Shown in pieces: positions 3,065 to 64,000 of a stretch of 64,000 nt of DNA. The DNA is from Rhizoclosmatium globosum (taxonomy: Eukaryota > Chytridiomycota > Chytridiomycetes > Chytridiales > Chytriomycetaceae), in NCBI GenBank assembly GCA_002104985.1, contig MCGO01000015.1:310001-374000 (forward strand), given 5' to 3'. The position numbers were made by a program, and so were the translations under genes. The stretch's first letter is position 1, and each line of letters opens with the position of its first letter. The notes below the pieces were generated by a model. The model had not been told where the DNA came from and ran no database searches. It was given only the letters and a program-made list of their open reading frames with translations.

Positions 3065-4674
3065 TCAGCTCGCGGTATCGACTCTCTTGACTTCACCCTT
3101 TTCAGTGTCACTTGTAACCTCTTCTCCGTACGAGTTGGTACGGCCTGCGACAGCATTCGTTGAACCAGTTGCAACAATAGCCACAGTATGTTTCGCAACC
3201 GAAGAAATCGCGGCGTGGAATTGCTGGCTCTGAGCAAGAGAAGTTCCCAAAAACTTGTACACCTGAGAGCTTCTATCGAAAATGTTTCCATCTTCCTTCG
3301 TCTCAGTCAAAAAGAACTCCTCCGGCTTACGGTCCTGAACACCAAGCGCTCCAAGTGTGCAGTTACCAAGGTAGATTGAACGCTCAGGTTCAAGAGTCTC
3401 AAGACGCTCAGTGTGGGCTTTGGTCTTGAACTCGTGCATGTATCCGCCAGAGGAGACAACGTAGTAGAATTCCTTGTAGGTTTGGAAAATATCCTTTGTC
3501 TTGCGAGTCAAGAGACCTTCGTGGACGAGACCAATCAAAGGGTCATCATGCCCTTCGTATTGATCAGTTTCAAACATTTCCGGACCTGTGGACTTGTCCA
3601 ACTTGCTGGTACAGAACAACTTCCACTCCTTCTCGGCATCCAAACCAGCCAAAGCGGCTTCAATATCGCCCGAGTGTTCCACCTTGTGAGACTGGATCTC
3701 GGAGATTGAGGACACGCCAATCAGAGCAACCTTGAGTTCCCGGATCAGATTCGCCTCAAAGACCTTGAAATCCGCCTTCGTGTCGATAAGGCTCTGGTTT
3801 CTAGCCTCGTGTTTCGCCTTTGCGTGATCGAGTTTGTTTTTGAGGACTTTGTTTACGAGCCACGGATCGCCGTACTTTTTAGCGTCTGTTCCTGGTCTGC
3901 GGGCAAAGGAAAGCGCTTTTTGGAGGTCTTCTTTTGCTTTGATGATGGACTGTTTGTCGCGGACGCGTTCTTCGTTGCGGGCCTGGTGTTTGAGTGAGTG
4001 TTAGGTTGATTCTAAGGAGGGTTGGGACTTTGACGCAGACCTTCTGTTCGCGAATAAGAATGTTCAACTTGGACTTGAGCGTGCGCTGGATTCCCTCAAG
4101 GGCCTTGGTCGTCTGGTTCTCCAGGCTGCGTTCAACGGTCGAGTGCTGTCCGGCAAGAATCGTCGCATCGGTCTTGAACACTTGGACAAGGGCTCGGATC
4201 GCTGACTCTTCAACGAATGCACGGTCGCGGAGTGGTGCCTGTTGGGTCCAGAGCTGTTTTTGTGAGTGATGGGGAGAATCAGAAGTGCTTTGCCAGAAGT
4301 ATAACGCGTGTTATCGGAGTACATACCTTCTGGTTCGAGGTGTGAGATCTGGCAAGTGCCTTCTCGGCTTCATAAATGCGGTTGAAGTGGTTGGACAAGG
4401 AAACAACAAAGTCCTTCCATCCATGCACGCGATCAGTCAAGACATCGGCAGGGTCAACAGCTAGTCCAAGAGCGACAGTGTTGGCTTCAGCGTCAAAGTT
4501 CTCTTCTCCTTCTGCCAATTTGGTGGCAGACAATGTTGGAGAGGATGGTGGAGACAGAGGTCGCTGGGATGGGGAACGGTTGTCCAACGTTTTGGATCGG
4601 AACATGGACATGTTGCGGCTTTTGTAGGTTGATGGTTTTCTTGGTGTGGAAATACGGGTGGTTTTATATTCCAA
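3065..4674 (-). CDS. Slm1/Slm2-like BAR and PH domain protein, copy A
   Basis: Three exons (4674-4327, 4253-4041, 3982-3065) give about 492 residues with no frame break. A conserved MSMFRSK follows an optional 21-residue leader (first ATG 4674, second 4611). A long helical region (about residues 60-290, rich in Lys/Glu/Gln) looks like an F-BAR/BAR fold. A PH domain follows at about residues 325-440, with the Slm1-type pattern of an FYYVVSSGGYMHEF strand and an ERSIYLGNCTLG strand. Yeast Slm1/2 are plasma-membrane, PI(4,5)P2-binding effectors of TORC2; a similar membrane-stress or eisosome role is inferred here. A close paralogue lies immediately upstream in the same orientation (4965-6669), so the pair is a tandem duplication. 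Confidence 0.8.
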
Positions 4675-4964: not shown

Positions 4965-6669
4965 TTAGTAAGCAGTTGGAAGTCTCTTGACCTCCTTCTC
5001 AGGAACAGCAGGAGCTTCACCAAGAGTGTTGCTACGACCAAGAACAGCATTGGTAGATCCAGTGGCGACGACACCCATAGTGTGCTTAGCAATCGAAGAA
5101 ATAGCAGCATGGAACTGCTGACTCTGAGCAAGCGAAGTTCCCAAGAACTTGTAAACGTGGGATCCTCTCTGAAACATTTTTCCGTCCTCCTTCTTCTCCG
5201 TCAAGAAGAATTCTTCAGGCTTACGGTCCTGAACACCCAAGGGGTCCAAAGTACAGTCACCAAGGTAAATCGTTCGCTCAGGCTCAATTGACTCAAGACG
5301 GTCGATTTGTGGCTTGGCTTTGAACTCGTGCATGTACCCACCAGCAGAAACGACATAGTAGAATTCCTTGTAGCTCTTGAACAAGTCCTTGGTTTTACGG
5401 CTCAAGACACCTTCGTGGACGACACCAATGAGAGGGTCGTCGTGGCCTTCGTATTGATCAGTTTCGAACATTTCTGGGCCACCGGATTTGTCGAGTCTGT
5501 TGACGCAGAATTGCTTCCATTCCTTTTCGGCGTCCAAGGCGGCGAGACCAGCTTCGATCTCGTTGGCGTGGCTGGCACGGTGGGGCTGGATTTCGGAGAT
5601 GGAGGAAACGCCAATAAGGGCAACCTTGAGTTCACGGATCAAGTTTGCTTCAAAGACTTTGAAGTCGGCTTTGATGTCAACAAGCTTTTGGTTACGAGCA
5701 GCGTGCTTCATTTTGGCGATTGCGAGCTTGTTCTTGACTTCTTGGTTGGCCAACCATGGGTCTCCGTATCTGTTGGAATCAGTTCCTGGTCTGCGGGCAA
5801 AGGAGATTGCCTTTTGGAGGTCTTCCTTAGCCTTGATGATGGACTGCTTGTCCTTCAATCTTTCCTTGTTACGTTGCTGTAATTTAAAATGGGAATATGG
5901 GTAAGAAGCTGAACACTCAGAGGGTGGCAAAAATTGGGCGTACCTTTTGGTCCTTGACCAAAGCAGCCAACTTTGCCTTGAGAGACTTTTTGATTCCATC
6001 CAAAGCAGTGATAGTTTGCTTTTCCAAGCTGTGTTGGACAGCCGAGTGCTGAGCAGCAAGGGCGGTGGCATCGTTCTTGAAGACCTGAACAAGGCCTCTG
6101 ACGGCAGACTGCTCACCGAAAGCAAGGTCTCTAACTGGGCAGGGTGGGTCCAGTGCTAATTTGATATGAATGATGGTGAGTTGAATGTTTATCAATTTGT
6201 AAGTTTCAAGTTGAAAGGGGGTATGGAGAGCACACAAGCCCAGAGTGTGTCTCCCACTCAGCAACTCTGGCGCATTCACGCATCGTGAGTAACGAAACCC
6301 TCACAAACACGCACCTTCTGGTTCGCAGTGTGTGACTTTGCCTGGGCCTTCTCAGCGTCTGCGAGTCTGTGGAAGTGGTAGTTGAGGGCGACGACAAAGT
6401 CCTTCCAACCGTGGGCGCGGTCCGTCAGAACATCGGCGGGATCAAGCGCAAGGCCGAGCGCCAACGTGTCCGCCTCCGCGTCGAAGGTGTCGTCCCACTC
6501 GGCCGAGCCCGGGTGTTCGTACAACTTGGATGCGAGAACGACGGCGACATCGGCGGGGAGTCGGCGCTTCCGCGGCAGGTGCGGCGGAGGGGAGTGTGTT
6601 GCGCTTGTCAGCTGTCTTGGACCGGAACATGGACATGATCTTGGCTTTGGGGCTGGGTTTTTGCTTCAT
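4965..6669 (-). CDS. Slm1/Slm2-like BAR and PH domain protein, copy B (two frame breaks)
   Basis: This tandem paralogue of the 3065-4674 gene shares its exon plan: 6669-6315, 6155-5944, 5876-4965. The last exon (304 codons) is clean and carries the PH domain. Exon 1 is one nucleotide too long: MSMFRSK is in one frame, and the stretch that continues into LALGLALDPADVL is in another. Exon 2 is 212 nt where copy A has 213, with the break near 6136-6146. There is no GT-AG intron that repairs either break. The exon-1 region is unusually GC-rich. Either the sequence contains one insertion and one deletion error, or copy B is a recent pseudogene. Conservation of the rest argues for a working gene. 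Confidence 0.7.
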
Positions 6670-28650: not shown

Positions 28651-28733
28651 ACGACAACTGCAGGACTTGAACCTGCGCTCCCAGAGGGAATTGCATTTCG
28701 AGTGCAACGCCTTAACCACTCGGCCAAATTGCC
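28651..28733 (-). tRNA. tRNA-Ser (anticodon CGA)
   Basis: The minus strand folds as a class II tRNA of 83 nt. There is a seven-pair acceptor stem (GGCAATT with AGTTGTC), a D arm around GGCCGAGTGGTTAAGGC, and an anticodon stem TTGCA/TGCAA around loop CTCGAAA (anticodon CGA). A long variable arm (TTCCCTCTGGGAGC region) and T arm GCAGGTTCAAGTCCTGC complete it. No intron and no encoded CCA, as expected for a eukaryotic nuclear gene. Confidence 0.93.
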
Positions 28734-28923
28734 GCTCGTTCAAGGAAGGTTTTGAGCAATAGAAATGGACCATACAACATTAAATGGTTGATTCCATACA
28801 GAGAGCCTTTGATCATTCATTCACGTGAATTCAAAGTCAATTAATGTATTTCTATTTTCCACTCAGTTGTGGAGCTTATTGTAAGAGCGGAAGGTATTGT
28901 CAAACAGACTTCAAAACAATCTG

Positions 28924-31900
28924 ATGAAACTGATTTTTGCCCTGACTCTCGCCTCATCTGTTGTTGCACAAGTGCCCGTGGCAAATTTATCGGACATATG
29001 GAATATAACAGAGATACAAACCATGGATGGCACAGGGAACAACAAGCAATATCCTCTTTGGGGATCAGCAGGAGCTCCTTATCTCAGGCTAACACCTTCA
29101 GACTACGGCCCCAATCAATGTAACATACGAACAAACCCGAATCCGCCGTCCTAACTGCTCTTAACATCAGCACCAAACGGTAAAACTCGACCAAACGCGC
29201 GACTCATCTCAAATGTCCTCTTTGGTCAAAAGCCATTCCTCCAAAACAGCGACGGGATCTCAGACTTTGTTCCTGCTTGGGGCGTCATGCTTCACCTGGA
29301 TTTGACTGTTCTGTCGCGTAATAGTTGTGAGTTCTGTGGTGTGTCCACAGTGACAGAACAGTTCGCTAAAGCACTCGAATGAAAGCTGACCCATACCCGA
29401 TCCCCGTCCCTCCAAATGATCCGGTCTTTAATATACCTGGATCTCCGGAAAACTTTATCCCGATGGATCGATCTGATTACACAGCTGTTGATAACGTTAA
29501 TAATTTGAGAGTTCATCCGAACGCGTTCACAGCGTGGATTGATTGCAGTGGACTCTATGGAAACAGTATTGCTGACATGAACAATATGCGGTCGTTTGTG
29601 GGCGGGAAACTCAAGAGCGTGTTTATGGAGAAGGGAGAGTTTCCTCCGATTCTACCTGATGGGACTTTCGCGTTCAACATTCGTAATTTGAACATGATGC
29701 CTGTAAGTTCAATTCTATTTAATGGCCTTCTTATGATTTATTCAGCAACTTATGATGAATTATCTGCTCTTCTTCCGAGAACACAACCGACGTGCGACAG
29801 TGTTAGCTCAAAGATACCCAGATTGGAATGATGAACAGTTGTTCCAACGATCAAGAAGATGGGTGATTGCGATAGTCCAGAAAATCACAGCAAATAATGT
29901 TCGTTTCCTTTGAGTCGCCATCCTCACTTAACTTCATGCTTAGTACATAACAGCCGTAACAGGCGAATTGCTGGACCCATACCCAGGATACGACCCAACA
30001 GTAAACCCCAATATTGACCTCTTCTTTGCAAACGTCGCCTTCAGATACGGCCACTCCGCAATTAACCAAGTCATCACCCGAATAGACGAATGGGGAAACC
30101 AAGTCCGTGAAGGACATTTATTGTTCCATAAAGCGTTTTACGAGAAACTCGTAACCCAAGTCACGTTGTATGGGATTGAATCCATCTTGCGAGGGTTCGC
30201 GACTCAGAGAGATCAGGTTATTGACACGCATATTGTGAGTGAAGTTCGCAATTATTTGCCTTTGAATCCTGGACATTACTTTGACTTGGCTGCAATCGGA
30301 ATACAAAGGTAAGCCAGTCATGAATCCTTTGGTTAGTGTTAACGATTTATTCAGGGCGAGAGAGCTGGGAATTCCATCCTACTCGAAACTTCGAGAATTT
30401 TTCAATCTTACCAAACCGTTTTATTGGAGTGACGTGACCTCTGACACTTCCGTTCAAGAGATTCTCAGTGATTTATATGAGAGTGTGGACGACCTGGACG
30501 CGTACGTTGGTAAACATAATTCCCAAGCTTAGCACTATTTGAACCAAATCAACAAATACATACAGGTGCATTCGCCGAAGACAAAATTGACAAAAACTCA
30601 ATAGTGAGTCGAATCCAGCGAATCTCCATCCGCGATCAATTCACACGAATCCGAAACGGAGATCGTTTCTGGTACGAGAATCCAGGAGTCCTCTCCCCAA
30701 TGGAGCTTGCCGAATTATCCACATTCACGTTGGGTGACATGGTCCGTCTGAACACGAACTGCACATACTATCCGAATGATCCGTTCATCACGACACCTGT
30801 TGCTTCTGGATTCTTTTTGACGGGACCACCGAAAGCACAAGCTTCATATTGAATCAGGTTTCGTTGATGGGCACGCTTCTGTTAAGTTGGCAGATACGCA
30901 CCGCTGACGGATACATTGACTTTCGGTATGAAAGTAACGCAACGGGATGGTTCGGGTTCGGATTCGGTGTGAATATGCTTGGAGCCGATATTTACTTTTG
31001 CAGTAACCTAGGAAACGGGACGTTCGGGGTACAGGATTCATGGAGGTGAGATTTTCTTTTTCTTTTCAATTTGGTTTTGGAACTGACTTTCAAATGACAA
31101 GTTCATCAACGCAACCAATTCCAAGCGACGTCAGCCAAGGAGGAATCAACAACGTAATCAACCCTTTGGACATCACATCTCAACAAACCTACTCAAAACG
31201 CGTCATCACATTTTCTCGCCTCTTAAACACCGGCGACCCGTTTGACATTGCCATTACAAACCAACCGATGGACGTCATATTTGCCTTCTCAGACAACGAC
31301 CAGCTTGTATGGCACGGTGCACAAAACCGCATGTCCGCAAAACTCAATTTTTACGTGAACCTGAATGGAAAAACTGCACTCCTCGACCAAGGTCCGATTG
31401 TGTCTCCTGGTCTCAAAGCCATCCACGGCGCGTCAATGTACGTTGCTTTTGGATTCATATACCCCTGGGAATCTTTGTGGCTCGGTATTACCAGAACATG
31501 GGAACCTGGCTCTCTATTCATCGTAGTTTAATGACAATCATCACTTCAAACGTGTTGATGGCCGCGTTGACGGCCTTGGTGGGGAGTTATGGTGATGTCA
31601 CGTTTTTTCACTACAAGATTGGAATCGCAGTTGTGATTGCTGTCTGTCTAACAATGATTCTTGGATACATGTCGGTAAAGTATCATGAGGAAATATCGAA
31701 ATATGGGTCATGGGCTGAAAGAGTACGGTTTATCCACAGAATTTCTGGTGAGTTTAAAAATTTAAATAGCTCTACTCACAGCAAATAGGATATGTGACAT
31801 ATGTTGGAGGACTGATCTCCGGATACTTTGGAGTATGTGATATTACAGCGGGTACAAAGTACCAAAGCTCCCTTCCATTGCCTACTTGATCTCAGGTAAT

Positions 31901-33845
31901 TTAAAACCCTGGCTTTCTTTCGCTATCAACATATGAAACCCTTTTATCAAATAGTTCTCATTGTCCCAGTCACTCTCGTCGCATACGGCGAACTAATTCT
32001 CCTCCCACGCGCCCGCTCGAAACTTCGAGGATCCACAGACCTGACAGGTCTCCCAATTTTTACATGGGACGACATAAACCTCCGCGTCGGTGCCGGCTCA
32101 AAATGGCTCGTCATTGAAAACCTAATCTACGATGTGCAAAAATACTACCCCTCACATCCAGGTGGTCCCGGACGAATCCTCCAAATGATTGGTCTCGATG
32201 CAACGAACGCTTTCAGCGGACCACCGTCCCGTCGAAAACTCGCATCAAGTTCGAGGAGCCTGACAACAAAATCAATGGCCTCGTTTAGATCCAAGTCAGG
32301 GACGTTGAATAAAAAGAGTCAATCGCAGACACAGGGAGCTACAATGGTTTATTCGAAGGGAGGGTCGCGGTTAAGTGAAGAAAGGAATTCGTCGAAGCAG
32401 TTGTTTTCAGAGGACGAGTATGGAGAACATGCGCATACTCGGTTTGCAAAGTTTATTCTCGCAGGGTTGGCTATCGGAAAACTAAGGTTTGGACAGTTTG
32501 GGTTTCTGAAAAGGTGTACTGAAGTTTCAGCTGTTAGAGACGATTCAGAAAGAACTACAGTGACTCCAGCAAATGCGTCAGTCCGGCAATCAATGTGGTC
32601 GGTCACTGTACCAAAGGGCAGTGAAATCAGTACCGAAAAAGATATGCGAACGCAACAACAACCAATGCTAACTGAGCGCTTCACACTATTTGAATTTGAT
32701 CAGAAATTCCCTTTGACAGATCCCCAAATCAAGCAACCAATTTATATGTTCAGGTTCTTGTTCAAGACACCTGAAAGTGAATTGGTTCTGAAACCAGGGC
32801 ATTGTATCATGTTACAGTTTGTTGCTAATGATGGTAAAATCGTAACTCGTTCGTATTGGCCTGTTCAAACTGTAAACAAGGGCGGGGTTGATATAATCGT
32901 GAAGTTGATTGGAGGGGAAATGTCAAATTGTAAGTTAAATCTAGTTCGTCTGTTTGACACCATTTTTATTCTATGATAGATTTAACAACGTGTGACTCTA
33001 TTCGCATGAGGGACCCATGCCAGATACAGATCTCACGAATCCATACAGCGAGAACGGAACCTGGAAATCCCTCGGAATTATCACTGATGGAATAGGATTA
33101 GCTGGAGCCTTACACTTGATTGACTACCACCTCCGAAACTGCAAACGTGATCCGATAACAAACAAACCCAACTTTCAAATCCATATTCTCACCAGTTTCG
33201 AGAACGAGAATGAAGTGTTTGGGCAGAAAGAGCTAGGGCAGTTGGAGGCGAGCTCGTGTGGCGCGTTGGTTGTGACTATGATATTGAGGAATTCAATGAC
33301 AAGAACGTATAATGGACTGATGGGTGAAATTACGGCGGAAGTCGTATTGGCTACAATGCCGAACCCTGATTTTACACAGCAATGGATGCCGCAAGAAATG
33401 AAACCAGGAGGGCTTGGAGTCTCAGTGTTGGCAGTAGGTGGTGGAGGAAACAGTTCTAACAATAGCGGTCCTGGAGAGGGACTCGGAATGTTTGCTGGAA
33501 CCACTCCAAGTAATGTAGGAACAATATTCCGTGAAGAGGGGCTTTTTAGAAGGAAGTTGTCATCAGGACTGATTGCAAATGACTATTCTGCCGATCCATC
33601 CATCAAGGCGACGCGTCAAATGAGTATGGAGGAAAGCGGCGCAAATGTAACTTCACCAAAGCCGAGCAGTATTGATACCATAGACGACGTTCATTCATTG
33701 GCAATGATCGTGTGTGGGTGGGTTGTTTGTTCATTTGGTACATAATTCAATACTAACTCCTTCCAGACCAACAAATACTCAAATATTAGTTGGAGACTTG
33801 TTACATGATCTCGGATATTCCAGAGTCTTTACTATTCATTCTTGA
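28924..33845 (+). CDS. DUOX-type haem peroxidase fused to DOMON, cytochrome b561, cytochrome b5 and reductase domains, copy A
   Basis: Twelve exons: 28924-29119, 29171-29326, 29386-29702, 29746-29898, 29944-30308, 30355-30509, 30566-31045, 31102-31747, 31789-31895, 31955-32929, 32980-33717, 33767-33845; about 1,450 residues. Signal peptide; animal-type peroxidase (about 20-540: AWGVMLHLDL, WIDCSGLYGNS, FFREHNRRA, FRYGHS with proximal His, RNGDRFWYENPG). DOMON (about 545-700: FGFGFGVNMLGADIYFC, VWHGAQNR). b561 (about 710-860) with four His in HGAS, IHRS, HYKI, IHRI. b5 core SHPGG with the second His displaced (EHAHTRFAKF). Ferredoxin-reductase-like tail, but RSYWPV and TDGIGLAGA replace the FAD and NAD signatures. 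Ser/Gly-rich insert before CGP. Four one-base breaks: near 30835, a C4 run at 31462, near 31880, a G3 run at 33010. Confidence 0.85.
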
Positions 33846-34847: not shown

Positions 34848-37216
34848 TTACACATTCATCTCTCCCATTAGTATACTATCCTCCCCACTATCTGCCCATA
34901 ATGTTGTCAAATGAGGAACTTCTGCACGCGAACCCCGTCGTCGATACAAGTTCGCCTTGGCTCGTTTGTATTGCCTCCAAAACACTATTCCCAGGAATAC
35001 AGTTATCGCAATACACGAAATAACAAGTGCAGCCCGAATACCTGTCCCTGATAACCAAATGCTCAACCTTCTGCTCCCTCGCCCGTCATCAATTGTAGAG
35101 CATACATGAACCAACAGGGCCCCAAGTGTCCAACTGATTGGAAAGCCTCCCAATTCATGCACAGGCTCAAACACACTCCTTGCCATTCGGTAAGAATCTC
35201 TACTGACACCACCCTCCTTCAAAACTTCATTCCTTGGAATTCCAAAACCTTCATGCAATACTTCCAGAACCCATGCACTCTTGAAGCACTGTAGCATAAC
35301 GCGCCCTTCTTCCACTGAATCCTCAAACTCCTCCTTCTCATGCTCAACAAGCCATTCATTTCGTACTTTACTCCAAGGTCCCCGACAAATTGAGTCAGCA
35401 CTCTTGACAAACTCGTCAAACAGGTACACACCCTTCTCTGTCACTGCACCCTTGACACCTGTTGGTGTGTAATAGTATTCTGCAACACCCAAAAACCGAT
35501 GCTTCCCAAAATCTGCAATGGCGCGTGAACACCATTAAATAGACAGGGAGGTTCATGACATGGGAGATGGTTATTCAGGTACGGGTTCAGTTCCGAGAGG
35601 CAGTTAAGGAGAGACCCGTTTCCAACAAGCGCCGGTCGAGGGGGTCTATTCTTGCCAACCCTTTTCATTATCAAGGACCAATCCGCTCGGGAGGCACGAG
35701 TCATACAACGGCACGAACTCCTCCTTATCGTTTTCTTTCAAGTCTGCCTGAACAGCTGAAACAACCCCATCCCTTCGTCGATCTTTCACAACACGAAACC
35801 CATTCCTCACAGCAATCCCTTCCAAATACCGTCTCCTGCTTCATTCACTCCAAATCCTAAAAATGTGCTTACAAACACATCAGTCCTCAAATCCCGCCCC
35901 GCAACATTCCTCAACACAACTTTATGCAGATCATCCGAATGCTGCAGCTTCATACTTTCCACCGGCTCAAACGCAATCTGCGTACTGGCCCCGCCCATAT
36001 CCAAGAACCCAAATGTATTCGGACTCTCCTTATGTGGAGGCGGTGGAACCTGAAGTGTGCGGTCACCAAACCCTTTGTTGAGGTAGTTGACTGCAACCCA
36101 CCCAAAGACTCCTTCAGCCTCCCCTGAAATAACACGGAACTGACGTGCACATCCACCATCAAGAGAGAATTGTGTTGTTGGCGAACAGTTTCGCATGCGT
36201 GTTGAAGGATTTGGGCACGTTGAAGTGGAGGTACGAGACGCATACCGGCTGTTGCAAGGAGGTATACGGGAGTTGATGAGTGCAACGATGTAGGTACAAC
36301 AGATTCCGAAAATTTCAAGAGCGGCGCAAGATAGTCCGAGACTTGATCCAGTTTCACAGTGTCACCTGCCTTCTTTGGATTAAACAGACTCGATAGACCC
36401 GGTTCAATCGCTTTCGACCATTTACGCCCCTTCTTTCCTTCTCCCACAGGATTTAATTCACTCTCAGGGAACGCTTTCTCAATGAGTGGCAATAAATCCC
36501 TTTTCTGCGATGGATGGTCAAACACCTTCCACGAATAAATCAGGGCTCGAGATCCAGATGAGCCCGCGTCAATCACGATACCGTATCTTCTATCTGCGTA
36601 CCAATCTGTTGACCACTCCTTTGAAACAGTTGTTGGTTTATAAACGGGAAACCCAGTGTCAAGAGCCAACATCGCCAAATCCACAGGCTCAATCGAAGAA
36701 TTAACTGGGAGGTGCTGATGAACTGAGGGACGCTCTTGCGTACCAGAACCCGAAACAGAGAAAGAAACCGCGAGTGTCCCCATCAAGGCCACCAAGACAA
36801 CAACAAGACAGTAATCACCACCCGATCGCGATACCTAGCTAAACAATAATCAACAACGAGCGTCTAATATCGGGAAGAGGGTCCAAGGGTCACTTCAAGA
36901 GAACCAACATACCGCCGCAAAGCCAGAACGACACAGCGACCCACGTGTTTGTCGCAAACAGTTTCGGGTCCCGGAAGAGTGTTGAGTCACGAAGCGTTGG
37001 TGGAGGCGTTGTAGCTGACGCAGGCGAAGGTGAAGTTGGTTGTTCAATGAGAGCTGCAAATGAGGCCGTGGACGATGTGCGGGTTAACCCCAAGTCTGAC
37101 TTAGGGTTAGCCACTGTTATCCCTAGTCCGAGAGATGTGCCCCCAAGGGCTGGTGACAGCGGAGCCGTTCCACTGCTCGAGGAGTAGTTCCTTCGCATGT
37201 CTTTTGACACTTCCAA
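34848..37216 (-). CDS. Golgi-type apyrase (GDA1/CD39, Ynd1-like)
   Basis: All main apyrase-conserved regions are present: GIVIDAGSSGSRALIYSW (ACR1), VYLLATAGMRL (ACR2), GEAEGVFGWVAVNYL (ACR3) and FGFLDMGGASTQIAFEP (ACR4). Later LFNGVHAPL precedes a C-terminal membrane helix (IRAALVISCIAITVFLGIVF) and a basic tail. The first exon (37216 to about 36911) encodes a Ser-rich cytosolic N-terminus running into a hydrophobic segment, giving the two-helix topology of Ynd1/ENTPD4. Such enzymes hydrolyse nucleoside di- and triphosphates in the Golgi lumen to support glycosylation. At least four frame breaks occur (about 36800, 36180, 35825, 35505), all between conserved blocks. Confidence 0.82.
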
Positions 37217-37510
37217 TCAATTTCTCTCTCAGATTCCATATTTAGTGACACGTAAATGGTGATTGAAAACAATAACTGAGATAACTCGATATTTTCGTTC
37301 ACTCTAGAATGAATAATTCGTGATTTATCGATTATGCTCCACATTGCCGACTTTGGACACACTTATAAATTAGCTATTCGACGAGGAAAGAATGAGTATA
37401 CGCCATAGTTGCGTCGGACTCTCAGAAATGATATTGTTGGCGGGGGGCACGATGGGGCAAACTGAATTTTTCCCTTTCTATTTGCTCCAAAATCACAGCG
37501 AGAAGATCCA

Positions 37511-38883
37511 ATGACAACCATCACATTGCAAAGTCCGTCGTTCTCTGACGGAACCAAAGAAGAACCCAAAGTCATGGTAGTAGCAAGCGTCGACTCCTCG
37601 CTTGCTGCAAAGGAACCTGAGTGGCTCGAGAACAAGCGAAAGCCACGGATGAAACATCATATATCGAACGTGAACAAGGAGCATTGGAATGACTTGTTCC
37701 GAATGTCTCACGCTGTGTTACCAAAAGTTTTCCTTCCTTCTGTGGGTCAGGCTATTTGGTCTACCCTTGTTTGCATCTTTTACTATGTGCCTCAAGTGAA
37801 CTTCCTCAAGTATGTTGTATTGAATCTTAAATGCACCTGTATTTACTTGATAATCAGGAATCTGGGTCTGCCAAACTCGACTTTGCTCATCACTCTTCTT
37901 GGAACGGCGATGGGTCTGCTCCTGGTTTTCAGAGTCAACAACTCTTATGACAGATACTGGGAAGGCAGAAAAGTTTGGAGTATTGTCCACTTTCAATTAC
38001 GAAACCTTGGGCGCTTCGTATGGATCTACTGTACCCGTAAGTTGTCCCATCTCCATGGGTGCGGACCAATTAAGATACTAATCCCTTTTCAACAACAGCA
38101 AAGACCGATGAGGACGCTAAGCAACAAGTCGGAGCAATGCATCTTCTGATTGCGTTTGCCTCTTCCGTCAAACATGCGTTGCGAAGAGAGCCGAGCCACC
38201 GTTACGAAGATCTTGGACCTCACTTACAACATATCCCCGACTTTGGCAGAAACGTCTATGCATCTCAAGCGCCTCTTCCTATTCCCCTCGAAATCACACT
38301 TCATCTCCAAAAGTACTTGAACCAATATAGCGCTTGCCTTGGCCCTGCTACAGCCTGTCTCAACGGTCTCGCAGACGCTTTGACTATATTCCAGAGAATC
38401 CGATCAACTCCGATTCCAGCCGCATACGCTATCCACTTGAAACAAACTCTGTTTGTGTACCTCCTATCACTGCCATTCCAATTAGTCGCATCTCCTCTTG
38501 GCTGGTGGACGATTCCAGTCACTTTCCTTTCTTGTATTGTCATGCTTGGTATCGAAGTCATTGGAACCGAGATTGAAAATCCTTTTGGTTTGGATCCAAA
38601 CGATTTGCCAATGGACGAGTACTGTGACCACATTGAGCGCGAGATTATGCAAATCATGAGTTTGGAGGACCCTGAGCGTGATTCTAAGCACTGGATCCCG
38701 CCATTCTCGTTGTCTGTACCACATGTGAACGTGAAGGAGTTGAGAGGTGCGACTGGTGAAGCTGTTAAGGTGGCTAAGGCGAGGGAAGGAAAGTTCATTC
38801 ATAGAACCAGTGCTTTGTTGCTTCATACCAAGGACATGGTTGCGAGAATTTCTGGAGCTGATGAGCTTCATCATTCCAAATAG
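37511..38883 (+). CDS. bestrophin-like anion channel (UPF0187), copy A
   Basis: Three exons (37511-37809, 37858-38036, 38099-38883) without frame breaks. Bestrophin-family motifs: LGTAMGLLLVFRVNNSYDRY followed by WEGRKVWS, then a helical middle, then SLPFQLVASPLGWWTIPVTF and EIENPFGLDPNDLPMDEYC. Four membrane helices are expected. Family members in bacteria, fungi and plants form pentameric chloride or other anion channels. Tandem copy B begins 92 bp downstream in the same orientation. The apyrase gene diverges upstream across about 295 bp. Confidence 0.85.
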
Positions 38884-40347: not shown

Positions 40348-41029
40348 TTGTGGTTCAAACTAAAACCAGTACTTTCCGTCAAGTGTGATTGAATGTAATG
40401 AAGAGTTTATTACCTACCATGAGAGAGATTCTGACCAAATGTTGGAGCATCCGTATTTTGCCGATGCTGTAATATGCTTTTGCGGTGAGTCATTAGTCGG
40501 GTTCTACCCATGAGCTTCAAGGAAAGCTCCATGAGCAAGCAAGTCGAAGCATTCCCTTCCTAATGAAACTAATTTTGCAACGTGACTTGATCCTCTTGAA
40601 TGTCTTTTTATTCGCGTCCTCAGCACAACATACATTCCAGCAATAAAGTTCAACGAATTATAGATGGGAAAGCAAAAGAGTGCAAATGCCGCAGCCGGAA
40701 TTAATTACTTGTTCGACTGTTATGAAACTGTATTGTAGCATCAACAGAGAAACTCGCAAAAACTCGTGTTTTCTCCGCCTCCATTACAATTAGAAACGAT
40801 GATAACTAATTCGAATTGTGCTTTGAATCCATTTCAAATTTCATTTCCAATACGAATGACGTAAACGATCTGTTTTCAAATTCGATATTTCTAATCAGAA
40901 GAAGCAACGTCATCGGAAAAACCGGTATAAAGAGGCACACTCCCTGAGTCATTCCACATGGCAGCCACCAGAGAAACCTTAAAACCTCCGAATCGAATCC
41001 GGACCTTCTTCCTAAGCAACTGAGTCACC
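40348..41029. other. intergenic region, no supported gene
   Basis: About 680 bp, A/T-rich with scattered stops in all frames. It probably contains the promoter of the kinase that starts at 41030. Nothing else seen. Confidence 0.4.
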
Positions 41030-42204
41030 ATGTTCTCGACAACCAACACCGCCTCTGTCAGCAGCAGCAGCAGCAGCAGCAGCAAACACTCGTCCACGTC
41101 GAGCGCCAACTCCGTGACTAAAACCACCACAGCTGCCGCAACAACAACGAGCGCCGACAAGAACCAAAAGCCGCTCTACTCGGGCCTCAACTCCGAAGCC
41201 ATGGCCCGAATGGCCGTCTACTCCGCCTTCACCCAGTCCCCAAACCAACTCATTTCAAAGTACAAAGTACAGAAAATAATCGGATTCGGCTCAAACGGCG
41301 TTGTCCTCGCTGCCTTCTTCAACGCAACTCCGGTGGCAATCAAAATCATTTACAAATCAAAGACTTCAACAAACGCTCCAGTTCCCGCTGAGATTGATAT
41401 TCTGAAACAGTTTGGTTCAAACTCCGCATCAACCCACTTGTTGCAATACATTGAAGACTGGCAAGACCAGTCTGCCTTCTACGTTGTGACTGAACTCCAC
41501 GGCGCCGACTGGCTCAAGAACACGGGCTCTTCAACCCTCCGTCCAGTCACTTTCGGCCTCACACACAACAACGTATTCCTCCGTCTCTCCCTCCCAATCT
41601 CTACCGGCTCCTCCGATCTCTGGGCCTGGTCCTACGCCCACAGAGCCCACATGTACGCAACAACAGGCTCCCCCATCCTTCCTCTCGAACCAGTCAAGAA
41701 AATCGTCAAACAAGTCGCGATGCTCTCGCCGAAATGCATAACAACGGGTTCTACCACGGCGACATCAAGATTGAGAATATTCTTGTGGGTCAAAACACTT
41801 CTGTCCGACTTGCGGATTTCGGACACGCTAAACATGCGTCGCTTGGAATCAAGCATTATGGGACACTGGAAGTGTCTGCGCCTGAGTTCCTCCCTGATTC
41901 GCACTTTGTGAGTGGGGAGTTGGATGGTCGGGCAGCCGATGTGTTTGCATTGGGGATCGTGTTGTTTTCACTTGTGAATGCGACTGGTGAGGTACCAAGT
42001 GTTGTGAGACAAGTACTGGCAGGTCAAGTTGGGTATGCTGCTTTGGTGTCTTGTGATTTTGGGGAGTATCCTTTGGATGAAGTGCCAGATTTGGATGAAG
42101 ATGGATGGGACCTCTTGTTTGCCATGACCAGAGTGGATCCTACGACTAGAGTTTCCATCACTCAGGTGCTGGCACATCCGTTCTTTGCCGATGTTGTCGT
42201 ATGA
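41030..42204 (+). CDS. Ser/Thr protein kinase with HGD catalytic loop, copy A
   Basis: The N-terminus has a Ser run encoded by a CAG/AGC repeat (41057-41085) and a Thr/Ala-rich stretch. The kinase domain begins YKVQKIIGFGSNGVVLAAF (Gly loop), VAIKIIYK (ATP Lys), then after one missing base near 41720 AEMHNNGFYHGDIKIEN (catalytic loop HGD instead of HRD), VRLADFGHA (DFG), APEFL, and ADVFALGIVLFSL. It ends at the domain edge. Residues needed for catalysis (Lys, Asp, Asn, DFG) are present; the HGD makes it a non-RD kinase, which usually do not need activation-loop phosphorylation. A second HGD kinase of the same type is at 63392. Confidence 0.82.
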
Positions 42205-52026: not shown

Positions 52027-55000
52027 ATGCCAGTGATCGGCCGACTAGCTTTGCTTTTATTGTTCAAACAAGCAGTAGCTTTCGACACTCAGTCTTATGA
52101 TGGATCAGGAAATAATCTACAAAATCCGAAATGGGGATCAACAGGAGACCCATTCTTGAGGCTTACTCCGGCACAATATGGACCCAATCAAGGTAATACT
52201 GGACAGGAGTGGGCGGGTTTCAGGATGATCGACGCGAAAACTAAAATGAGAAACGGATGACAACGAAATTAACCTATCCTGTTAAAACCCTTAATTACTC
52301 AATATCTAACAAGTTTTATTCAGCCCCAAACGGTCAGAATAGACCAAACGCAAGACTTGTTACGAACATTCTTCTTGGCCAACCCGACGTACAAGACGTG
52401 AAAGGGGCGTCTGATTTCTTGCCAGCATGGGGAGTCGTGATGCATCTAGATATCACATTCGCGCCTAAAAATGATTGTAAGAGCTGTCTTGGTTTCGTGA
52501 TCTTGAATCACTCAACACTTTCACAAAGCCGATCCATTTCCTATACCAGTCCCCAAATATGATCCAGACTTTGATCCATATGGTACAGGAAATCAAACTA
52601 TTCCGATGGGTCGTGCAAGTTACAGTGGTGTTGATACAATACGAAATTCTCGAATTATTACAAACGCTTTGACTTGCTATATTGACGGGAGCGCGTTATA
52701 CGGAAACTCGATAGACGATATGAATTCAATACGAGCATATACCGCTGGTCTCTTGAAAAGCGTACAATATCCAACTGGAGAATTCCCTGGTCGCATCGTT
52801 GGTGGCCGTATGGATGGATATTTCGAATATTCAGTTGCGAACGTCAATATTTCACCAGTTGAGTTTTGCTCATTTAGTTAGTAAAGCGATTAATAATGGT
52901 ACAGCAAACACTGATTCCATATGTTCTTCTGTTTCGAGAACACAATCGACGAGCAAGACTTCTGTTGTCACGGCATCCAACATGGTCAGATGAGCAGTTA
53001 TTCCAAAGAGCACGGCGATGGGTTATTTCTATTATTCAAAGGACGACAATTGATTTCGTAAGTCATATTCAAACACCTCTTCCTGTGTGGCTGAATCATG
53101 CTGCACTTAGTATGTTCCAACTCTCACAGGTGGTCCTCTACCCCCCTATAAAGGTTACAACCCAGACGTCAATCCTCAAATAGACCTCTTCTTTTCTCAG
53201 GCTGCCTTTATTTACGGTCACAGTGGCTTGAACGAGTACGTATTGCGAATAGATGACTCCGGAAACGTGATTCCTGCTGGAAATATGCTTTTACGCGAGG
53301 GTGCATTCAAAAACTTGTGCGATGAAGTCATCGCGTACGGAATAGAACCAATCCTCAGGGGATTTGTGTTACAACCGGAAAACGAAATCGATACAAAGAT
53401 TGTGGATGATGTACGGAATAATCTTCCGTTGAATCCAGGGACTTATTTCGACTTGGTTTCAATTGGAATTCAACGGTTAGAACCCCTCAAACTCACTTGT
53501 CGAAACTAAACAATCAACAGCGGTCGTGACCTTGGCCTCCCCGATTACAACACAATCAGAAAATCCTTCAACATCACACCCATCGAAAATGGAGCGACTT
53601 AACCAATGATTCAAACGTCCAAAACATATTATCAAACCTCTATTCCAGTGTGAACGACCTCGACCCGTCGGTTGGAATTTTTGCTGAAGACCCCAGCAAC
53701 CCTAAAAGTATGGTAGGTCCCGTCACAGCCGCATCAATCCGCGAACAGTTTACCCGTTTACGAGACGGCGACCGGTTCTGGTGGCAAAACCCTGGTGTCC
53801 TGACTGACGAGGACAAGTCTGATTTCCTATCGTTTGGAATCGGACAACTTGTGACTCTCAACACGCAAATCAAGTACTTCCCTGACAATCCGTTTGTGAC
53901 GCTCAACAGCTCCCTTCAGTACTTTTTGGGTGGACCGTCGTCGCGGCTTGTGCAAAACGCGTCGATAAGTTCTGTGGATGTGTTTGGCTGCTGCGGTTAT
54001 CGTGGAATATAACGACGGCAGACAATGTTATACATTTCAGGTTTGAAAGTAATGCAACGGGATGGTTTGGGTTTGGGTTCGGGACAAGTATGTTGGGAGC
54101 TGATATCTACTTTTGTAATGATGGAGGGAATGGCAGCTTTACAGTGCAAGATTCTTGGAGGTAAAAGCCTCTGATTTGAGGCGTGCATTTCAACTTATTA
54201 TCGTACAGTGTCGCTCCACAACCACCGCCAAGCGATGTGAGCCAGGGCGGTCAAGACAGTATCATATATCAACATGATATCACATCCCTTCAAAATTATT
54301 CTACTCGCGTCCTCATTTTCTCTCGCAAACTCTCGACCGGCGACCCATTCGACACGGATATTATCCACGGACCTATGGATGTCATCTTCGCATTCTCTCA
54401 ATCATCTGAATTAGCCTGGCATGGGGCCTTGAATCGTATGCACAGTCAAATCAACTTTTACGAATCCTCCACGGCCATTGCACCATCCCAAACGTCGACC
54501 GTTTCATCTAGTCTCTTGATTCTTCATAGTATATCTATGTACGTCGCTTTCATTATTCTGTATCCGTTGGGAATCTATGTGGCGAGGTATCACCGGAACT
54601 TGAATCGATGGCTTTCAATCCACACGTCACTTCTCTCCTCCGTCACGTCAAACGTTGTCGTAGCTGCATTGACCGCAATTATTGGGACATTTGGAAATAC
54701 GCAGTCAGTTCATTACAAAATCGGTATGGCGGTGATAGGTCTTGTTGGCATTTCATCAATGGCTGGTTATTTCGCAACAAAACTGTATATGGCACATTAT
54801 AGGTGGAGTAATTTAGCTGCAGTGTTTCGATATATTCATAAATATTCTGGACTGCTTGCGTATATCGTTGGACTTGTTGATTGTTACTATGGTGTTGTGG
54901 AATTGAGTCCTACTGCTTCTGAGCAAGTTTATTATCAACTTATTTTTCTTGTCACTGTGTTTATTCCACCGATTGGATTGTATCTGTATGGAGAAAAGCA

Positions 55001-56730
55001 GAAGCATCTGAACATTGACGTAAAGGACTATATGGGACTGAATAATTTGCCGTTGTTTAGATGGGAAGATGTAAATCACCGCGTTTCTTTGGGTGCGAAG
55101 TGGATTGTGATTGATGATATAATTTGTAAGTTTGGAGTTCTTAAAACGGTAACAATTCTAAAATACCCTAGACGACATTCAAAAATACATGGACTTCCAT
55201 CCAGGTGGTCCCTATGCACTCAACCAGATGATAGGAATCGATGCAGCCTTTGCATTTAATGGAAGATATACAAAAAAGCCTCTCATTGAAAAGTTCGGAA
55301 GCCTGGGCCGCCGAGGAGCCAATAGTGATGATGAAGAAGACGAGAAATTGAGGCAGCAATATGTTGTGAATAACCCAACAACATATGTGGACGAAAAACT
55401 TGAAGCCTTGATATACAACCATTCACGGTATGCTCGAAATATTTTGTCAAATTATGCAATGGGTACATTAAGAGACTACGATCCAACGCCGCGACGCAGC
55501 TCAAAAGATGTCGATGACGTGACTAATTCTGATAGTATGCTGAAAGAATCATCGCTCGAATTGGGTACATCTCGAGTCAAGAGGATTCCTGTTCACGTAA
55601 ACACATTTCAGCATTACATTATCGGGAGGAAAACTCTTCTCACTGGTCCTAACGCTCGACATCCTGTGTATCTCTTCCGACTCCTCTTTGATGAAGAAGA
55701 TGCAGAAATGCATTCTCGACCAGGAGACTCGTACCTCTTCCAATTTGTGGATGATACTGGCAAACTCGTCTCAAGGTCATATACTCCAATCAAAGTCGAC
55801 TCAAAGGGAGGCATTGATTTTATGATCAAATTGTACAACGGAGAAATGACACACTACCTCAGTGATGCAAAGTCAGTACGCATGCGAGGCCCAATACCAC
55901 GAACCGATCTGTTGAATCCCTTTTCGGAGTCGGGATGTTGGAAAACTCTTGGTCTCATAGCCGGCGGAACAGGAATAACTCCGATGTTACTCATCATTGA
56001 TTACCACCTGAAATACTGTTCACGGGATCCTGTGACAAATCGACCCAACTTCCACATCCATTTACTGTATGCAAATCTGGATGAGAAGAATATATTTGGT
56101 GTCAAAGAAATCGGTGAATTGGAAGAACGTGCGAATGGAGCTATTACCGTGACTTATATCGTCAGTGGAATCGCCAGTGAAGAATTTGATGGTTTGGTTG
56201 GGAATATCACGCCAGAGGTGTTGATTGCAACTATGCCAAAGCCTCTTGCCCAACGAAAAAAGTTTGGGTTGCACCTCCGAGTGGAAGCGGACCAACCTCT
56301 ACAGCTGGTAGTTTGATGCGAAACAGAATCAAGACACCTCAGTCTTACGTCGCAGATGGTAGGAAGAAACGAAACGAATGGCACATTCTCATCCTAACCT
56401 AATTTTTAGATTGGCATTCGGCTCTCTCCAAATCAAGAACAAACAAACAAAGTACTGCTTTAATTCCAGTGATTGAATTGGGCATGAAGGAAACGCGTCA
56501 AATTGGATCTGGTTCTCGTTCGCAATGCTCGACAGACTCTGGTGGAATCTCAAGAGACACTGCAGAGGTAAATGAAGGGTCGAGTATGGCAATTGCGGTG
56601 TGCGGGTAAGTTGTTTTTTAATTTTCTGAGGAGCCTTAACTCAATGATTTGCTTTAGTCCTATTCTCATGAATGTAACTGTTGGCGATATGCTGCGAAAT
56701 CTGGGGTATCAAAATGTATTCACTATTTAA
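52027..56730 (+). CDS. DUOX-type haem peroxidase fused to DOMON, cytochrome b561, cytochrome b5 and reductase domains, copy B
   Basis: Same architecture as the 28924-33845 gene, with introns at matching places (e.g. after exon 1, 52027-52192, and exon 2, 52324-52476). Signal peptide; peroxidase with WGVVMHLDIT, YIDGSALYGNSIDDM, REHNRRARL, IYGHSG (proximal His), RDGDRFWWQNPG. DOMON: FGFGFGTSMLGADIYFC. b561 His in HSISM, IHTSL, HYKIG, IHKYSG. b5 core DFHPGG with second His in NHSRYARNIL after about 74 residues instead of about 24. Reductase signatures are intact: RSYTPI (FAD), GGTGITPM (NAD), CGPILM. It ends NVFTI. One-base breaks near 53985 and at an A6 run (56256-56261). Copy B looks like the catalytically complete member. 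Confidence 0.86.
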
Positions 56731-63391: not shown

Positions 63392-64000
63392 CTAAAACCA
63401 CTGATGGTCCACCACGCCTTGGATTGAAATCCGTCCTTTGGGATTCACCATGCACATTTGTTGCAAGAGATCCCTTGAGTCAGTGCTGAACTCTTCCCCG
63501 AACTGAAACGGAAACTTTCCTTCGTTAAGATTGATTGATTCCCAATCAATTCTCCCATGAAAGTCTTGCAGATTACCGCTCTCAGACAAAAGTATGTACA
63601 AAACCATTCCCAACGCAAACACATCCGCCTCCCGTCCATCCAACGCATTTCCCAAATATGGGCTCCCCACTAAAAATTCAGGCGGTACAGCATTCTCTGT
63701 TCCATATTTACATATCCCACTGCTTACTTTCTTGGCATGACCAAAGTCAGCCAACACCACATAAAGCCCTCTAGTATCCTCCATCCCAATGATCAAATTC
63801 TCGAGTTTCACATCTCCATGATAATATCCATGGGAATGTAACTCTCTTAAAGCTTTCGCCGCCTGCAACACAATGCATTTCACGGCCTCAACCGGAAGCC
63901 GCTTGTGACCTTCCAATTTAGCGAATACTTTCGATGCATAGTCGCCCACGCCCACGCATCGCAGCTTCCCGGAGAAACAGGGATAGAATGGTTGATCTCT
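63392..64000 (-). CDS. Ser/Thr protein kinase with HGD catalytic loop, copy B (N-terminus beyond window)
   Basis: The frame is open from the window edge to a stop at 63392 and contains the C-terminal kinase lobe: ALRELHSHGYYHGDVKLEN (HGD), VVLADFGHAKKV (DFG), CKYGTENAVPPEF, DGREADVFALGMVLYILL, and a final GRISIQGVVDHQWF. It is the same kind of non-RD kinase as the one at 41030-42204, including the DFGHAK motif and the conserved KYGT step. The Gly loop and ATP Lys lie outside the window. Confidence 0.8.
   Translation of the reverse strand, partial: RDQPFYPCFSGKLRCVGVGDYASKVFAKLEGHKRLPVEAVKCIVLQAAKALRELHSHGYYHGDVKLENLIIGMEDTRGLYVVLADFGHAKKVSSGICKYGTENAVPPEFLVGSPYLGNALDGREADVFALGMVLYILLSESGNLQDFHGRIDWESINLNEGKFPFQFGEEFSTDSRDLLQQMCMVNPKGRISIQGVVDHQWF

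What the first reader, a model, noticed from the sequence alone, without database searches (positions are those of the whole stretch)
28924..33845. Five-domain peroxidase-to-reductase fusion: a DUOX-like machine built without NOX
Seen: one spliced gene encodes a signal peptide, an animal/DUOX-type haem peroxidase domain, a DOMON haem domain, a four-His cytochrome b561, an HPGG cytochrome b5 and a cytochrome-b5-reductase-like FAD/NAD module. Known: DUOX couples an extracellular peroxidase-like domain to a membrane NADPH oxidase; DOMON-b561 proteins move electrons across membranes; b5 reductase feeds b5. Inference: cytosolic NAD(P)H electrons could pass via b5 and b561 haems to the DOMON and supply superoxide/H2O2 or reductant to the peroxidase outside the cell, or in a vacuole. 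I know of no described protein with this full order; fungal Ppo enzymes pair a similar peroxidase with P450 instead.
Basis: partly seen in the sequence, partly recalled or inferred. Interest (0 to 1): 0.92.

Follow-up and report, generated by a model that had tools for sequence, protein, structure and literature searches.

The report
Fungal peroxidase-reductase wire without NOX
Two genes in this stretch of a chytrid fungus each spell one long protein that joins a predicted signal peptide, a peroxidase-like domain, three cytochrome-type domains and a flavin reductase, although frame breaks that are likely sequencing errors interrupt both copies as assembled; relatives in three phyla of early fungi keep the same order, and the protein is predicted to carry electrons from inside the cell to the outside, much as animal dual oxidases do but on different membrane machinery.

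Summary
The domain order is real: predicted signal peptide, animal-type haem peroxidase, DOMON, four-His b561, cytochrome b5 and a b5-reductase-like FAD/NAD module. The gene is public as "heme peroxidase" of Rhizoclosmatium globosum (1323 of 1324 aligned residues identical). (1) As assembled, the frame breaks three times; the public model steps around these spots, and the breaks look like sequencing errors. (2) A second copy lies at 52,027-56,730. (3) The peroxidase has lost its distal histidine. Three capped searches gave 68 public relatives in Chytridiomycota, Glomeromycota and Mortierellomycota. In 40 of 40 rows covering 13 cofactor positions (the proximal His among them) all 13 are kept, but the distal His is kept in 0 of 56 rows, against 80 of 80 bacterial relatives. 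So the electron path looks complete while classical peroxidase chemistry is likely gone. Most likely it is an NAD(P)H-driven trans-membrane reductase ending in a rewired peroxidase-fold haem that would reduce O2: a DUOX analogue without NOX. O2 as acceptor is inferred; ferric iron is the main rival. Nine literature searches in one open-access library showed no description. The DUOX likeness is analogy, not shown descent.

The parts
28924..33845 (+). Gene A: 14 exons, peroxidase-DOMON-b561-b5-reductase protein (about 1422 aa when read through three frame breaks)
   Evidence: same gene as public protein P0001
28924..28971 (+). Signal peptide of gene A (predicted from hydropathy; absent from the public model, which starts later)
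29020..30771 (+). Animal-type haem peroxidase domain, exons 1-7
   Evidence: Pfam PF03098 3.5e-113; PDB 8s6c 2.1e-86; coordinates
29278..29307 (+). WGVMLHLDLT: place of the distal His (Leu here)
30040..30057 (+). FRYGHS: proximal haem His, kept
30876..31366 (+). DOMON domain with Met and His haem ligands (30969-30989, 31304-31324)
   Evidence: PF03351 2e-18; fold match to cellobiose/pyranose dehydrogenase cytochromes in relative P0048
31415..32001 (+). Cytochrome b561 region with four His (31415-31435, 31510-31530, 31603-31623, 31726-31746); two of three frame breaks fall here (31462, 31853)
32053..32448 (+). Cytochrome b5 domain, HPGG at 32152-32172 and second His 32428-32448
   Evidence: PF00173 1.8e-10
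32665..33842 (+). Cytochrome-b5-reductase-like FAD/NAD module; NAD(P)H motif altered in this copy; third frame break at 33011
   Evidence: PF00970 4.3e-8
52027..56730 (+). Gene B: paralogue of the same order, 10 exons, three frame breaks (near 53587, 53986, 56264)
52096..53877 (+). Gene B peroxidase domain; distal place WGVVMHLDIT 52428-52457, proximal His 53207-53224
53994..54431 (+). Gene B DOMON domain, from its start to the His ligand
54516..54998 (+). Gene B b561 region, four His, five helices
55050..55434 (+). Gene B cytochrome b5 domain
55591..56727 (+). Gene B FAD/NAD module with intact RSYTP, GGTGITP and CGP motifs; nearest solved relatives NADH-cytochrome b5 reductases

Best explanation
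Each of the two genes, read across its frame breaks, encodes a single membrane protein that is predicted to take electrons from cytosolic NAD(P)H through FAD, a cytochrome b5 haem and two b561 haems to a DOMON haem on the outer face, where a peroxidase-fold domain that has lost its distal histidine but kept its proximal one would likely serve as the last haem and reduce O2 to superoxide or H2O2. Shown: the parts, their order, the kept ligand residues, the lost distal His. Predicted: signal peptide, five helices, orientation. Inferred: that the chain works, haem in the peroxidase domain, and O2 as acceptor. In use it would be an analogue of the animal dual oxidase that replaces the NOX membrane core by a CYBDOM core plus a b5-b5-reductase pair; gene B keeps the NAD(P)H motifs, whereas gene A's clade has altered ones and may be weaker or specialised.
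Against: No transcript, protein or activity data. The CYBDOM proteins tested in the two papers reduce iron, copper or ferricyanide, which favours a metal acceptor. The distal Arg is not firmly lost: 0 of 62 at the aligned column, but an Arg lies within the six columns around it in 26 of 62. Asn421 (partner of the proximal His; numbering recalled) is kept in only 25 of 64, against 75 of 80 bacterial rows, and human DUOX1's peroxidase domain shows no haem (PMC7794343, passage), so the fungal one may be haem-free too. Gene A's clade has an altered NAD(P)H motif and Trp for Thr in the FAD motif. The hydropathy scan misses one helix in gene A and flags spurious stretches in the reductase part. The model that covers the peroxidase is of low confidence (pLDDT 68.5, pTM 0.40).
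Confidence: 0.45

Rival explanations
1. A self-fuelled ferric (or cupric) reductase: a CYBDOM protein with its own NADH-b5-reductase in place of cytosolic ascorbate, reducing metal chelates outside; the peroxidase-fold domain is a scaffold or binding module.
For: Same DOMON-b561 core as HYP1 and CRR, which reduce Fe(III) (PMC10784544, PMC10784552 passages); distal His lost; many rows come from arbuscular mycorrhizal fungi.
Against: Proximal haem His kept in 60 of 60 rows, which a mere scaffold does not need.
Confidence: 0.33
2. A working extracellular peroxidase fed with reductant or H2O2 from inside.
For: An_peroxidase fold with proximal His 60 of 60 and the REHN Arg 60 of 60.
Against: Distal His kept in 0 of 56 rows, against 80 of 80 bacterial relatives.
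Confidence: 0.06
3. A surface protein of the peroxinectin kind in which the peroxidase fold serves in adhesion or partner binding and the redox chain regulates it.
For: Peroxinectin A is the second best solved relative; catalytic pocket changed.
Against: Gives no reason for the strict keeping of the redox ligands. No adhesion motif was looked for.
Confidence: 0.06
4. Genes A and B of this strain are pseudogenes: the six frame breaks are real.
For: Frame changes without introns at six places. Short runs of a base are common, so the run argument against is weak on its own.
Against: All six, and one in a GDA1/CD39 gene, have the same sign; five of the six lie at runs of three to six identical bases; ligands and splice sites are intact; relatives near both genes read unbroken over the same places.
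Confidence: 0.08
5. Two adjacent genes wrongly joined.
For: Domains of separate origin; no transcript seen.
Against: Unbroken frames span every junction in one or other copy; 55 of 68 public family proteins carry all four main Pfam domains (hand count).
Confidence: 0.02

Closest known systems
Dual oxidase (DUOX1/2, BLI-3, fly Duox)
   Same: Signal peptide, extracellular peroxidase homology domain without a complete catalytic pocket, membrane haem pair, cytosolic FAD/NAD(P)H module in one chain.
   Different: Membrane core is b561 with a DOMON instead of the six-helix NOX core; b5 inserted; no EF hands matched; proximal His kept in 60 of 60, whereas human DUOX1 lacks its haem ligand His (PMC7794343, passage). 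The three DUOX rows in my set keep the proximal His too.
CYBDOM proteins (HYP1, CRR, mouse SDR2)
   Same: Outer DOMON with Met/His, five-helix b561 with two His pairs, similar ligand spacing (gene A 37-33-30-42; CRR 40-36-33-36 from the residue numbers in PMC10784552).
   Different: HYP1 and CRR use cytosolic ascorbate and consist of DOMON and b561 (PMC10784544, PMC10784552, passages).
Ferric reductases with DOMON (Naegleria, oomycetes; FRD superfamily)
   Same: Outer DOMON fused to a haem membrane core and FAD/NAD module.
   Different: FRD core; DOMON and peroxidase-like domains sit on different proteins there (PMC3591440, passages).
Cytochrome b5 - b5 reductase fusions (Ncb5or, nitrate reductase)
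   Same: b5-reductase sequence and fold; b5 next to reductase (recalled).
   Different: No b561 or DOMON (recalled).
Bacterial secreted peroxidases / peroxinectin A
   Same: Closest peroxidase domains (33-39% identity in the 80 loci; 6erc).
   Different: The 80 keep distal His, Gln and Arg; the match covers the peroxidase part only.
Fungal Ppo / linoleate diol synthases
   Same: Peroxidase-superfamily domain fused to a second redox domain (recalled).
   Different: P450 partner, no membrane electron chain (recalled).

Membership tests
Dual oxidase (DUOX) | N-terminal peroxidase homology domain behind a signal peptide | tested here: met
   (signal peptide by hydropathy only)
Dual oxidase (DUOX) | NOX core: ferric-reductase-type six-helix domain PF01794 with FAD_binding_8 | tested here: not met
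   none of 16 members match PF01794 or PF08022; DOMON-b561 stands in its place (PF08030, a NAD-binding model, matches 3 of 16)
Dual oxidase (DUOX) | EF hands in the cytosolic loop | tested here: not met
   no EF-hand family among the matches of 16 members
Dual oxidase (DUOX) | NADPH-dependent H2O2 release | not testable with these tools
   needs expressed protein
CYBDOM | DOMON with Met and His haem ligands | tested here: met
   68 of 68 and 63 of 64; fold match to 1d7b, 6jt6 in P0048
CYBDOM | b561 domain, five helices, four His in two pairs | tested here: met
   hydropathy flags five helices in gene B, four in gene A; Pfam PF03188 matches only 3 of 16 members and the fold search did not test this part
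CYBDOM | Cytosolic ascorbate as donor | not testable with these tools
   a fused NAD(P)H reductase makes another donor likely
CYBDOM | Plasma-membrane site | not testable with these tools
   signal peptide and helices fit plasma membrane or an inner compartment
Active animal-type haem peroxidase | Distal His (with Gln and Arg) | tested here: not met
   His 0 of 56, Gln 14 of 54; bacterial rows 80 of 80 for both; Arg loss itself uncertain
Active animal-type haem peroxidase | Proximal haem His | tested here: met
   60 of 60
Cytochrome b5 | HPGG His and second haem His | tested here: met
   68 of 68 and 70 of 70
NADH-cytochrome b5 reductase | RxY(T/S), GxGxTP and CGP motifs | tested here: inconclusive
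   met in gene B; in gene A the FAD Thr is Trp and TP of the NAD motif is AG; family-wide FAD Thr 55 of 69, NAD Pro 60 of 69

The most novel reading that the evidence does not exclude
Early fungi evolved a second kind of dual oxidase, independent of the NOX family: a single-chain wire of up to five haems (b5, two b561, DOMON, peroxidase-fold) driven by NAD(P)H, in which a peroxidase active site was turned into an O2-reducing haem, and in which both inventions, animal DUOX and this one, lost the distal histidine after being fused to a trans-membrane electron source.
Probability: 0.3. Interest if true: 0.88.

Novelty: new variant of a known kind. Interest (0 to 1): 0.72.

Why it matters
If it works as inferred, NOX is not the only way to build a dual oxidase, and three phyla of early fungi, arbuscular mycorrhizal fungi among them (six rows from Rhizophagus clarus alone), carry an unrecognised route for moving electrons out of the cell. 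A published survey says that, of the calcium-independent NOX enzymes, Rhizoclosmatium has NOXB but not NOXA (PMC9421330, passage), so another source of reactive oxygen or of extracellular reducing power would be worth testing there. The strict loss of one catalytic residue beside strict keeping of thirteen cofactor residues makes a clean evolutionary experiment in turning a peroxidase into something else.

Tried and rejected
DUOX kinship of the peroxidase: the tree leaves it open (61/66); animal DUOX ranked high partly because only proteins of similar length are candidates there. Peroxidase-free versions of the membrane-reductase half: a search with residues 540-1429 of P0005 gave 12 proteins, all with the peroxidase domain, but only 7,993 best-word candidates of that length class were scored, so absence is not shown. 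Prokaryotes: one peroxidase peptide pattern gave 478 relatives, 80 kept; their matches end between query residues 478 and 533 except L054 (590); ten of the translated proteins (L054 and the nine longest) were looked at by eye only and show no DOMON-b561 that I could see. Fold search of model 1 was filled by the reductase and did not test b561. Sequence search of solved structures with gene B's DOMON-b561 gave one chance-level match (E 0.26). Model 2 (P0073, a truncated relative) was too uncertain to use and was not searched. NCBIfam gave only weak reductase matches far below cut-off in 3 of 4 proteins. Coverage of alignment columns (55 of 75 rows over 60% in all six regions) is a weak test, since DUOX controls also fill DOMON and b5 columns there; I use the Pfam count instead.

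Literature: ten searches in one open-access library, of which nine bear on the architecture and on DUOX1. Searches were broad and showed only 10 of 1,622, 12 of 93, 12 of 519 and 10 of 49 papers; no listed title or abstract start describes this architecture. Subscription papers are not covered. Of the papers cited I read search passages only, none in full.

I had first read one intron (32487-32537) as coding; the public protein and relatives corrected it.
Full report
What is there. The spliced gene at 28924-33845 (+) has 14 exons with 13 GT-AG introns of 41-59 nt. Read through, it gives about 1422 residues: predicted signal peptide, An_peroxidase (E=3.5e-113), DOMON (2e-18), a b561 region with four His, Cyt-b5 (1.8e-10), FAD_binding_6 (4.3e-8) and a C-terminal NAD-binding part. 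A public protein, P0001 'heme peroxidase [Rhizoclosmatium globosum]', is the same gene: 1323 of 1324 aligned residues. The window is therefore from this chytrid (Chytridiales) or a near-identical strain.

State of the frame. As assembled the spliced reading stops after 730 aa. The continuation lies in other frames, changing near 31462, 31853 and 33011 without an intron. P0001 lacks a stretch at each of these places, so its gene model stepped around them and lost the b561 part with the second His and part of the reductase; it also starts 33 residues later, and its one further gap is an intron that I accept. A second gene changes frame three times in the same sense, and a GDA1/CD39 gene between them changes frame within about 23 bp (profile 7-119, then 125-222 in another frame). 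All seven have one sign; five of the six in genes A and B lie at runs of three to six identical bases. I read them as assembly errors; unbroken relatives exist for both genes. The fusion does not rest on these places: gene A's first frame runs from the start through peroxidase and DOMON into the first helix, and one frame of gene B runs from DOMON through b561 and b5 into the reductase.

A second copy. Gene B (52027-56730, +) has the same order; it is nearest to Obelidium (73% over 488 peroxidase columns), whereas gene A goes with Siphonaria and Chytriomyces. Chytriomyces hyalinus has one row with each (P0003, P0071); Physocladia obscura has P0073 with gene B and P0009, too short for the tree, with gene A's motifs. 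So the duplication is likely older than these genera. In gene A's clade (P0001-P0004; by motif also P0009, P0011) the NAD(P)H motif is altered, with Trp in the FAD motif; gene B keeps GGTGITP and RSYTP. The Pro of the NAD(P)H motif is also missing in P0071 and P0010.

Family. Three capped protein searches gave 73 proteins, of which 5 are controls (three animal DUOX, one spider and one alphaproteobacterial peroxidase) and 68 are family. They come from Chytridiomycota, Glomeromycota and Mortierellomycota (lineages looked up for five names; the rest by recall). By hand count of the tables, 55 of 68 carry all of peroxidase, DOMON, b5 and FAD-binding Pfam domains; several of the others are partial. 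Pfam on the 16 members of the first alignment: An_peroxidase 16, DOMON 16, Cyt-b5 16, FAD_binding_6 14, NAD_binding_1 10, Cytochrom_B561 3, NAD_binding_6 3, and no NOX core or EF hand.

Residues. Over 70 rows (68 public and the two window genes; P0001 and gene A are one gene), gaps left out: DOMON Met 68/68 and His 63/64; b561 His 63/63, 60/60, 62/62, 58/58; b5 His 68/68 and 70/70; FAD Arg and Tyr 69/69; NAD Gly 70/70 and 68/69; proximal haem His of the peroxidase 60/60. All 13 are kept in 40 of 40 rows that cover all 13. The distal peroxidase His is kept in 0 of 56; 14 of 70 rows have a gap there; the distal Gln is kept in 14 of 54 and Asn421 in 25 of 64. Among the 80 bacterial relatives (best 80 of 478) distal His is 80 of 80, Gln 80 of 80, Arg 80 of 80, proximal His 80 of 80, Asn421 75 of 80. 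The family's Arg is 0 of 62 at the aligned column, but 26 of 62 have an Arg within six columns, so its loss is not settled. In 15 of 15 chytrid rows with a full motif, and in 0 of 39 others, the residue before the lost His has itself become His, a possible new ligand; untested. Residue numbers 91-421 and the names of these roles are those of myeloperoxidase, recalled.

Origin. Peroxidase tree with 12 fungal, 3 DUOX, 1 spider and 16 of the 80 bacterial rows: fungal rows one side, 94/88, not starred; fungi with DUOX 61/66. The nearest solved peroxidases are 8s6c and Dictyostelium peroxinectin A, ahead of DUOX1. So 'DUOX-like' describes the plan, not shown descent.

Mechanism (inferred). CYBDOM proteins carry electrons outward with the same ligands (PMC10784544, PMC10784552, passages). 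Here the donor is built in. The peroxidase domain is unlikely to be an ordinary peroxidase without its distal His, yet the haem-bearing His is fixed; the simplest use is a last haem with an open or re-ligated outer side, reducing O2. Human DUOX1's domain shows no haem (PMC7794343, passages) and fly Duox lacks both His (PMC4654585, passage), so loss of peroxidase chemistry after fusion to an electron source has a parallel. Ferric iron remains the strongest rival acceptor.

Known or new. The protein exists in databases as 'heme peroxidase' or hypothetical. Nine searches of one library showed no paper on the order. The FRD survey describes DOMON and peroxidase-like domains on different FRD proteins, not with b561 (PMC3591440, passages). 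I file it as a new variant of trans-membrane electron-export enzymes: it meets CYBDOM's testable features with added parts and fails DUOX's NOX core.

Noticed in passing
34848-36834 (-): GDA1/CD39 nucleoside phosphatase gene whose frame also changes without room for an intron, same sign as in genes A and B.
   Followed up: partly
52027-56730 (+): Second peroxidase-DOMON-b561-b5-reductase gene, about 18 kb downstream of the given one.
   Followed up: yes
3065-4000 and 4965-6155 (-): Two neighbouring BAR-PH domain genes that look like tandem copies.
   Followed up: no
37466-38883 and about 38946 (+): Bestrophin-type gene followed by what looks, by eye, like a second similar start.
   Followed up: no
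28651-28734 (-): tRNA-Ser(CGA) just upstream of gene A.
   Followed up: no
41024-42204 (+) and 63392-64000 (-): Protein kinase genes; the first splits over two frames with room for an intron; the second is named by eye only.
   Followed up: no
P0001-P0004, P0009, P0011: Gene A's group has lost the Pro of the NAD(P)H motif and has Trp in the FAD motif, hinting at a changed or weaker electron donor site.
   Followed up: partly
chytrid rows, residue before the lost distal His: A His is fixed there in 15 of 15 chytrid rows with a full motif and in 0 of 39 other rows; it could be a new haem ligand.
   Followed up: no
P0015/P0027 and P0024/P0034 (Rhizophagus clarus): Near-consecutive locus tags suggest tandem copies of the family in an arbuscular mycorrhizal fungus.
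   Followed up: no
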